Positions 11,696 to 13,804 of a DNA stretch of 64,000 nt are shown one piece after another (position 1 is the stretch's first letter; each line of letters starts with the position of its first letter). The DNA is taken from contig JAUIHI010000016.1 of the NCBI GenBank assembly GCA_030432295.1, forward strand, positions 62,001 through 126,000, read 5' to 3'. The notes beneath the pieces are model-generated. The model was given only the letters and a program-made list of their open reading frames with translations. It had not been told where the DNA came from and did not search any database. The position numbers and the translations under genes were made by a program. The DNA is from Anaerolineae bacterium. GTDB lineage: Bacteria; Chloroflexota; Anaerolineae; Caldilineales; Caldilineaceae.

Positions 11696-13804
11696 TCAGT
11701 CGTCCCCTATCTCCAACTCCACCCGCTTGCTCACCGTCCCCTGCCTTCTCTGGGGAACCCGTTCGGCAAACTGACCGATCAGGTTCGGCGACATCTCGTC
11801 GTTGAAGTAGAGGGGCACGGGCACAATGTCCACGGGCTGACGATCTTTGCCTTTGCCCAGCGGTGGGCAGCACCAGGCCGCGTCTTCGGCCTCCCGGCGC
11901 TGCTCCTTGAAATTCCCCAGAATGCCGCAGGAGAAGCAGTGCTCCCGGCAGTCGTCCACTACCCCGCCCTGATAGGTGTGGATGTACTCCTGGGCCAGAA
12001 ACTCCTTCTTCAGCCCGGCGGAGATGTGCTCCCAGGGCAGAATCTCGTCCAGACTGCGTTCCCGGCGCGCGTACCAGTCCATATCCAGCCCGTTTTCCGC
12101 AAAGGCTTGGGTCCAGGCGTCGAAACGGAACTGATCCCCCCAGGCGTCCAGCTTCGCCCCCAATTGCCAGGCCCGCTCAACCACATCACACAACTTGCGG
12201 TCGCCCCGGGTCAGGAACGCCTCCACCAGCGTCTCCCGCGGGTCGTTCCAGGTGAAGTAGAGTCCGTGTCCCCGCATCTCCTGTTGGAGCAGTTCGATCT
12301 GCTGCTCAATCACCGCCTGATCTTCCATCGGGACCCACTGGAAAGGGGTGTGGGGTTTGGGCACAAGTGTGCTGACGCCGACCCGCACGCTGGCTTTGTT
12401 GCCCAGAATGCGTCGCCCCACAGCCAGCACCGCTTTGGAGAGGTCGGCAATGGCCTGCACATCTTCCAACGTTTGGGATGGATGGCCGATCATAAAATAG
12501 AGTTTGATCGTCGTCCAGCCCCGACTGTAGACCTCCTCGGCGGTTTTGAGCAGATCGTCGGAGGCGATGGGTTTGTTGATCACATCCCGCAACCGGTCCG
12601 TGGCGGCTTCTGGCGCAAAGGTGAAGCCGGAGCGTCGCCGCCCCTTTTCCAGCAACTCCATCAGATCGATGCTGAAACTCTCGATGCGCAGGCTGGGCAG
12701 GCCGACCGATAGCCGCTTGGCTCCGTGGCGCTCCATTGTGCCCCGCACCAGTTCTTCCACATAGCTGTAATCGCTGCTGCTCAGGCTGAGGAAGCTGACT
12801 TCCTCGAAGCCGCACTGGGCGATCATTTCGTCCACCGCGGCCAGCACTTCTTCCGCAGGCCGCTCGCGCACCGGGCGGAAGATCATCCCGGCCTGACAGA
12901 AGCGGCAACCCCGGGTACAGCCCCGCATAATTTCGATAGCCGCCCGGTTGTGTACGACGTTGATGTTGGGCACAATAAAACGGGTCACCGGCGGGGGCAG
13001 GACCGTCACCACCCGTTTCATCACCTCTGGGGGGGCGGCGGGATGGGTGGGACGGGTTTCCAGCAGCGTCCCATCCGCGGCGTAGACAGACTCGTAGAGC
13101 GCAGGCACGTAGACGCCGGGGATGGCGGCGAGACGTTCCCATAGGGCGTGGCGGGGATTGGATATTGGGTATTGGGTATTGGATATTTCGTCGAGATGAT
13201 CGTCCCGGCCCAATACCCAATACCCAATATCTTTCTTCCACTCCTCCACCACTTCAATCACCTCAAACACCACCTCTTCCCCCTCGCCGATGACCATTGC
13301 GTCGAAGAAGGCGCTCATCGGTTCCGGGTTGAAGCAGCCGGAACCGCCGGCGATGACCACCGGATGTGCGGCGTTGCGATCTTCGGCGCGCAGGGGAATG
13401 TCTGCCAGATCGAGCATTGTGAGCACATTTGTGTAGAGTTGCTCGTAGGGCAGGCTGAATGCGAAGATGTCGAAATTGGCGATGGGGTGTGCGCTTTCCA
13501 GCCCGTAGAGGGGGATGGCGTTCTCCCGCATTTTGGCCTCGAAATCGATCCACGGGCAGTAGACCCGCTCTGCCAGCAGGTCGGCGCGCTTGTTGATCAG
13601 ATCGTAGAGGATGGCCAGCCCCAGGTTGGAGCCGCCCAGTTCGTAGATGTCCGGAAAGGCCAGAGCGACTCTGGCGCGGATGGCCGGGTCGTCCCAATCT
13701 TTGACAACCGAATTGAGTTCGCCGCCAGTGTAACGGGCGGGCTGGGCCACTTTGTGCAGCACCCGGTCCAAGGCCCGGCGGATCTGCTTGGGAGTAGAGA
13801 GCAT
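11696..13804 (-). CDS. TIGR03960-type B12-binding/radical SAM protein with an in-frame repeat insertion
   Basis: The 702-residue protein starts MLSTPKQIRRALDRVLHKVA and belongs to the radical SAM family annotated as TIGR03960, whose function is unknown. The N-terminal half contains the cobalamin-binding-like region (ELGGSNLGLAILYDLIN to PVVIAGGSGCFNPEP). The 4Fe-4S motif CTRGCRFCQAG lies at about residues 293-303. Cys-rich segments near the C-terminus (EHCFSCGILGNF, about 633) are also typical. Residues about 190-216 (including IGYWVLG and ISNTQYPISN) are encoded by a palindrome of GGGTATT heptamers, an insertion that keeps the frame. Such genes often sit beside a DUF2344 partner; none is visible here. 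The gene looks functional apart from the insert. Confidence 0.85.
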   Translation of the reverse strand: MLSTPKQIRRALDRVLHKVAQPARYTGGELNSVVKDWDDPAIRARVALAFPDIYELGGSNLGLAILYDLINKRADLLAERVYCPWIDFEAKMRENAIPLYGLESAHPIANFDIFAFSLPYEQLYTNVLTMLDLADIPLRAEDRNAAHPVVIAGGSGCFNPEPMSAFFDAMVIGEGEEVVFEVIEVVEEWKKDIGYWVLGRDDHLDEISNTQYPISNPRHALWERLAAIPGVYVPALYESVYAADGTLLETRPTHPAAPPEVMKRVVTVLPPPVTRFIVPNINVVHNRAAIEIMRGCTRGCRFCQAGMIFRPVRERPAEEVLAAVDEMIAQCGFEEVSFLSLSSSDYSYVEELVRGTMERHGAKRLSVGLPSLRIESFSIDLMELLEKGRRRSGFTFAPEAATDRLRDVINKPIASDDLLKTAEEVYSRGWTTIKLYFMIGHPSQTLEDVQAIADLSKAVLAVGRRILGNKASVRVGVSTLVPKPHTPFQWVPMEDQAVIEQQIELLQQEMRGHGLYFTWNDPRETLVEAFLTRGDRKLCDVVERAWQLGAKLDAWGDQFRFDAWTQAFAENGLDMDWYARRERSLDEILPWEHISAGLKKEFLAQEYIHTYQGGVVDDCREHCFSCGILGNFKEQRREAEDAAWCCPPLGKGKDRQPVDIVPVPLYFNDEMSPNLIGQFAERVPQRRQGTVSKRVELEIGDD
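13157..13232. repeat. GGGTATT heptamer palindrome inside a coding region
   Basis: A 22-bp arm at 13161-13182 (GATATTGGGTATTGGGTATT plus GG) is the exact reverse complement of 13210-13231, with a 27-base spacer. The unit is the heptamer GGGTATT. The whole element lies in frame within the radical SAM gene and is translated. Intergenic relatives are at about 512-553, 49331-49401, 49802-49968 and 56510-56720. Confidence 0.92.

What the first reader, a model, noticed from the sequence alone, without database searches (positions are those of the whole stretch)
13157..13232. Heptamer palindrome inserted in frame into a radical SAM gene
A perfect 22-bp inverted repeat of GGGTATT units, otherwise found between genes here, lies inside the coding region and is translated as about 25 extra residues (IGYWVLG ... 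ISNTQYPISN) with no stop or frameshift. It shows the element can move or expand into genes and be tolerated at a protein surface.
Basis: partly seen in the sequence, partly recalled or inferred. Interest (0 to 1): 0.7.

Follow-up and report, generated by a model that had tools for sequence, protein, structure and literature searches.

The report
Overwritten palindromic repeats inside bacterial genes
A short hairpin-forming repeat really is read in frame through a radical SAM enzyme gene, and relatives of this bacterium carry a different repeat at the same spot in this and other genes, so the insertion site seems old while the repeat in it is repeatedly replaced.

Summary
A perfect 22-bp inverted repeat built on GGGTATT (13161-13182/13210-13231) lies inside a TIGR03960 radical SAM gene (Caldilineaceae, Chloroflexota). 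It is translated as 24 residues (193-216) in a low-confidence loop between two predicted helices; distant orthologs have a linker about 22 residues shorter.

The finding is larger than reported. (1) About 14 in-frame GGGTATT arrays lie in about 12 genes of this genome. (2) At the same linker, nine other Caldilineaceae genomes carry arrays of other 7-8-mers, mostly palindromic. Occupancy tracks genome-wide repeat load (10/12 versus 0/28 genomes, p = 8e-8). (3) At four further genic sites (HemW-like, PBP twice, xanthine dehydrogenase) sister species mostly carry GGGGAYT arrays where this genome carries GGGTATT, with outer GGGGAYT relics at some sites.

Best explanation: old, tolerated in-frame insertions whose repeat is overwritten by whichever family spreads in the host, by array-to-array copying or template switching (mechanism inferred). 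RAYT genes in the genome are flanked by other palindromes, so they are not the evident driver. It works like Rickettsia palindromic elements but is not one: a new variant of a known kind.

The parts
11696..13804 (-). TIGR03960-family B12-binding radical SAM protein, 702 aa, holding the in-frame array
   Evidence: NCBIfam match 711.6 bits; orthologs in 40 of 41 related genomes searched
13157..13228 (-). Repeat-derived coding stretch, residues 193-216 IGYWVLGRDDHLDEISNTQYPISN
   Evidence: Translation; absent or different in orthologs; pLDDT below 50 at residues 196-214
13161..13182 (+). First arm of the palindrome, GATATTGGGTATTGGGTATTGG
   Evidence: 100% complementary to the second arm
13183..13209 (+). 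Loop/core, ATATTTCGTCGAGATGATCGTCCCGGC; its ATATTTCG start recurs in other copies of the family
13210..13231 (+). Second arm of the palindrome, CCAATACCCAATACCCAATATC
13153..13159 (+). Outermost unit GGGGATT, read as a relic of the older GGGGAYT array
   Evidence: Unit order in arrays, genic against other sites (p = 5e-4); GGGGAYT arrays at other genic sites in sister species
13806..13952 (.). Intergenic slot upstream of the gene; four sister species carry a different palindromic repeat here, this genome a weak one
   Evidence: Sequences of the slot in G000, G001, G002, G005, G006
49330..49402 (.). Intergenic GGGTATT palindrome of the same family, 24-bp perfect arms
   Evidence: RNA fold -54.6 kcal/mol, z -10.5
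49810..49823 (+). Intergenic single-sided GGGTATT array

Best explanation
This is one genic copy of a dispersed palindromic repeat of about 60-80 bp: inward-facing arrays of GGGTATT units around a short core. It sits at an old insertion site in a linker, where it is tolerated because a stop-free 7-nt unit reads through in every frame: (GGGTATT)n always encodes GYWVLGI and its complement NTQYPIP. What changes between species is the repeat, not the site. Arrays already present in genes are overwritten, often both arms together, by whichever repeat family is spreading in that genome. Shown: the in-frame arrays, the shared sites, the different units, and that each tested unit is common in its own genome. 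Inferred: arms fold back during replication or repair; slippage adds or removes units; template switching between arms keeps them complementary; switching to, or gene conversion from, a similar array elsewhere brings in a new unit and core. Selection keeps only in-frame, stop-free outcomes in loops. No benefit to the enzyme is required.
For: Different 7-8-mer arrays at the same codons in ten Caldilineaceae genomes, tracking genome-wide repeat load, 10/12 versus 0/28, p = 8e-8; by genus 5/6 versus 0/8, p = 0.003. Each tested linker unit is common in its own genome. Replicated at the HemW-like, PBP (two sites) and XDH genes: in XDH and PBP1 sister species have GGGGAYT-type arms on both sides and this genome GGGTATT/GGATATT on both. 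The new XDH array brings a CACTACGAAATA core also seen in intergenic copies. Outer GGNGAYT relics in 6/20 genic against 1/65 other arms, p = 5e-4. Arms fit best within species at the radical SAM site (p < 0.001) and PBP1 (p = 0.001).
Against: Arm concordance is not significant at HemW (p = 0.23) or PBP2 (p = 0.07). The G000-G006 grouping has support 68 only. Occupancy labels were assigned partly by inspection. One repeat-rich genus (G012) lacks the insert. No direct evidence of the copying event, and independent reinsertion at the same tolerant spots is not formally excluded.
Confidence: 0.58

Rival explanations
1. MITE- or REP-like transposition: each species independently acquires whole palindromic elements, mobilised in trans by a transposase such as a RAYT, at the few genic sites that tolerate 20-25 extra residues.
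For: Elements have a fairly uniform span and some share a core; RAYT-like genes occur in most repeat-rich genomes and in none of the sixteen-plus g8 and g16 genomes searched.
Against: Palindromes flanking the RAYT genes are of other families, none of them GGGTATT-type; G016 has Y1_Tnp genes but no such repeats; five of five genic sites tested are already occupied in sister species, which independent insertion makes unlikely; GGGGAYT relics outside the new units.
Confidence: 0.25
2. The hairpin is selected as an RNA structure, for example to slow ribosomes at a domain boundary, so arms covary while sequence drifts.
For: Strong mRNA hairpin (-41.4 kcal/mol), a linker position, arms that match within species.
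Against: Most family genomes have no hairpin there, and presence tracks genome repeat load; HemW in G003 and G005 and PBP1 in G006 have arrays without a significant stem; the same units are abundant between genes.
Confidence: 0.07
3. Local origin: each array arose from native codons by replication slippage at that site, independently in each species.
For: Arrays begin beside native TGG or ATTTTGGATATT codons at several sites; Borg tandem repeats are thought to arise locally (PMC9879509).
Against: Units are shared with tens to hundreds of sites in the same genome and are genome-specific; slippage alone does not make the inverted arm; the new XDH core is found at other loci.
Confidence: 0.08

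Closest known systems
Rickettsia palindromic elements (RPE); Wolbachia and Methanocaldococcus coding palindromes
   Same: Dispersed palindromes inserted in frame in many unrelated genes as well as between genes (PMC2229807, PMC10969869).
   Different: RPEs are about 105-150 bp with family-specific consensus sequences; here about 60-80 bp, arms of tandem 7-mers, and the repeat family differs between close species at one site. RPEs are described as losing arm identity with time (PMC6649704).
Heptameric G-rich repeats of Xanthomonas (GGGAATC) and Nostoc (GGGGAYT)
   Same: Same kind of 7-nt G-rich unit; about 70 convergent inverted pairs per Xanthomonas genome; some intragenic copies (PMC4692102).
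   Different: The same unit was compared in both Xanthomonas species; exchange of unit at conserved genic sites is not described in the passages read.
Coding palindromes of nematomorph mitochondria
   Same: Palindromes inside coding genes, gained and lost between species, with arm conversion proposed (PMC6649704).
   Different: Those arms encode conserved protein parts and are not made of short tandem units; here the repeat is extra sequence in a loop.
REP elements with RAYT transposases
   Same: Short palindromes in many copies; RAYT-like genes are present in this genome.
   Different: The RAYT genes are flanked by other palindrome families.
Borg tandem repeats
   Same: Fast-evolving repeats that create disordered protein segments (PMC9879509).
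   Different: Direct repeats, nearly unique per locus, no inverted partner.

Membership tests
Rickettsia palindromic elements | Palindrome inserted in frame in several unrelated protein genes | tested here: met
   About 14 arrays in about 12 genes
Rickettsia palindromic elements | 105-150 bp element with a family consensus and a conserved encoded peptide | tested here: not met
   Spans mostly 52-91 bp; peptide depends on the heptamer, and the unit differs between species
REP element mobilised by a RAYT | RAYT gene flanked by the same palindrome | tested here: not met
   RAYT loci read in six genomes are flanked by other palindromes; one, L236, has an unrelated octamer palindrome about 0.6 kb away
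MITE | Terminal inverted repeats with target-site duplication and empty sites in relatives | tested here: inconclusive
   Inverted arms present, but no clean empty site in close relatives to reveal a duplication
Heptameric G-rich repeats (Xanthomonas/Nostoc type) | Dispersed tandem 7-nt G-rich units, partly in convergent inverted pairs | tested here: met
   71 GGGTATTx2 matches in the genome; 29 of 47 sites read are palindromic
Heptameric G-rich repeats (Xanthomonas/Nostoc type) | G-quadruplex formation | not testable with these tools
   Needs biophysics; arms here have only two to four G-runs

The most novel reading that the evidence does not exclude
Different palindromic repeat families compete for the same tolerated positions in genes: a new family homes to existing hairpin arrays and replaces both arms and core, so conserved proteins keep a variable tag whose sequence reports which repeat family currently dominates the genome.
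Probability: 0.3. Interest if true: 0.8.

Novelty: new variant of a known kind. Interest (0 to 1): 0.62.

Why it matters
In-frame palindromes have been treated mostly as insertions that then decay. Here the positions persist across a genus while the repeat is exchanged, in several conserved genes, which makes the open question of how such repeats spread and stay palindromic testable by comparing close strains. It also warns that a species-specific stretch in a conserved enzyme can be repeat filler and not adaptation.

Tried and rejected
RAYT-driven mobility: RAYT-like genes found, but the palindromes flanking them are of other families. Known RNA: Rfam gives only a tRNA in the window. Unique recent insertion in this gene: rejected by sister species. 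Purely local slippage: rejected by unit sharing within genomes. Arm concordance at HemW and PBP2: not significant. The main RPE paper was not held; RPE facts come from two reviews. A literature search for Caldilineaceae with 'repeat' and 'palindrom' found nothing. Predicted genic sites near gene starts (L184, L188, L199, L201, L210, L211) were left out of the count as doubtful.

Full report
OBSERVATION. The inverted repeat is real: arms 13161-13182 and 13210-13231, 22 nt, 100% complementary, 27-nt loop. GGGTATT is found 18 times in the window against 3.35 expected, 0 of 100 shuffles as many, and three Markov-shuffled windows gave no comparable palindrome. It lies inside ORF 11696-13804(-), a TIGR03960 B12-binding radical SAM protein, and is translated as residues 193-216, IGYWVLGRDDHLDEISNTQYPISN. 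As RNA it folds at -41.4 kcal/mol, z -6.35.

INSERTION IN A LOOP. The window belongs to a Caldilineaceae genome (6.7 Mb, 61 contigs). Distant Anaerolineae orthologs have about 10-13 residues where this protein has 34 (W189-W222); a 78%-identical family member (L092/G016) has 13. In an AlphaFold2 model from 29 sequences (mean pLDDT 78, pTM 0.85) residues 196-214 have pLDDT below 50, between helices 178-192 and about 217-226. The insert is thus probably a flexible surface loop.

WHY IT IS OPEN. A 7-nt unit passes through all three frames, so a unit without stops is open whatever the frame: (GGGTATT)n always gives GYWVLGI, its complement NTQYPIP. About half of all heptamers are stop-free on both strands, so being open is not remarkable in itself; the net length must still be a multiple of three.

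MANY GENES. Forty-seven GGGTATTx2 sites of this genome were read. A conservative 14 lie in frame inside about 12 genes (gene calls from a codon model and open frames), including a HemW-like radical SAM protein, a penicillin-binding protein (two sites), a xanthine-dehydrogenase-type protein (XDH), a BTAD/AAA regulator and membrane proteins, some of them YfhO-type. Twenty-nine of 47 sites are clearly palindromic; several share an inner core related to ATTTCGTAGTGA.

SAME PLACE, DIFFERENT REPEAT. At the radical SAM linker, relatives carry in-frame arrays of other units: G006 GGGAGATT (31-bp stem), G005 GGGTGATT, G001 GGGGACT, G002 GGCGACT, G017 GGCGAAT, G015 GAAGATT, and G010, G020 and G061 with others; more distant Anaerolineae show further units, such as L120 and L143. 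For L074, L028, L076, L075, L094, L120 and L073, 0 of 500 shuffles reached the stem score; L078 gave 0.008, and L118, L080 and L103 are weaker (0.02-0.04), L080 and L143 being direct arrays. Occupancy follows the genome's load of GGNNAYT arrays: 10 of 12 genomes with at least 20 matches, 0 of 28 with fewer (Fisher p = 8e-8; by genus 5/6 versus 0/8, p = 0.003). Occupancy labels were assigned by inspection together with the stem test. Each linker unit tested is common in its own genome: GGCGAAT 245 in G017 and 0-6 in the others; GGGTATT 71 in G000; GGCGACT 23 in G002; GGGAGATT 20 in G006. The match is not exclusive: GGGTATT is also common in G004, G006 and G020.

REPLICATION AND OVERWRITING. Four further genic GGGTATT sites were followed to orthologs. 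In the HemW-like, PBP (two sites) and XDH genes the sister species carry repeats at the same codons, mostly GGGGAYT; this genome carries GGGTATT/GGATATT. The clearest cases are PBP1 and XDH: there the sister species have GGGGAYT-type arms on both sides, while G000 has GGGTATT or GGATATT on both. In XDH it also has a CACTACGAAATA core that recurs in intergenic G000 copies. On a tree of three genes G000 groups with G006 (support 68) within GGGGAYT-bearing species, so GGGGAYT is parsimoniously older. Outer GGNGAYT units remain in 6 of 20 genic arms but only 1 of 65 other arms (p = 5e-4), including 13153-13159 in the window. Left and right arms match better within than between species at the radical SAM site (15.1 versus 8.0, p < 0.001) and PBP1 (21.4 versus 14.4, p = 0.001), but not significantly at HemW (0.23) or PBP2 (0.07). 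At PBP2, G004, G005 and G006 keep a right arm of one unit with an unrelated left arm, as a half-replaced element would.

MECHANISM. Shown: in-frame arrays, shared sites, changed units, units shared with the rest of each genome. Inferred: fold-back or slipped DNA during replication or repair, template switching between arms, and copying from similar arrays elsewhere. Arm conversion has been proposed for nematomorph coding palindromes (PMC6649704). Selection would remove frameshifts and stops; no benefit to the enzyme needs to be assumed.

RIVALS. RAYT transposition was tested: RAYT-like genes exist, but the palindromes flanking them are of other families, and G016, without these repeats, has Y1_Tnp genes too; mobilisation in trans is not excluded. 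Selection for an RNA hairpin explains covarying arms but not the dependence on genome repeat load or the species without a stem. Local slippage does not explain unit sharing within genomes.

KNOWN RELATIVES. It works like Rickettsia palindromic elements (in-frame palindromes in many genes; PMC2229807, PMC10969869) and is built like the heptamer repeats of Xanthomonas and Nostoc (PMC4692102). It is not an RPE by size and build, and not a REP/RAYT element by gene neighbourhood. Replacement of one repeat by another at conserved genic sites is the new part, as far as the held literature shows. Limits: draft genomes, no reads, no experiments.

Noticed in passing
L221, L223, L224, L225 (own genome); L227, L228, L231, L234, L235, L237, L239, L240 (relatives): RAYT-like transposase genes, each flanked by its own short palindrome family (e.g. 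GTAGGTGCGGTTTGTAACCGCAC, TGTAACGCAAGC..., GTTGGGTTCTCGCC), typical REP/RAYT loci with several families per genome.
   Followed up: partly
window 6906-6976, 7040-7126, 45024-45089, 47816-47982, 51010-51081: Other palindromes built from short units (GACGCTGAT, ACGCAAAG, CGGTCTG-like, ACACGGAT); first arms are mostly purine-rich.
   Followed up: no
window 7173-7241 and 56597-56665: Two copies of one element, AAAAACCGAGTTTTT...AAAAACTCGGTTTTT with a nearly identical 39-nt loop in inverted orientation.
   Followed up: no
genomes G020 and G061 (same genus): GGGTATTx2 occurs 106 times in G020 and never in G061, so unit families turn over fast or arrive laterally.
   Followed up: no
genus g8 genomes, e.g. 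G051, G054, G057: The reversed control pattern is itself frequent there (up to 310 matches), pointing to a different heptamer family in that genus.
   Followed up: no
window 13806-13952 and its counterparts in G001, G002, G005, G006: The intergenic slot beside the radical SAM gene holds a different palindromic repeat in each sister species.
   Followed up: partly
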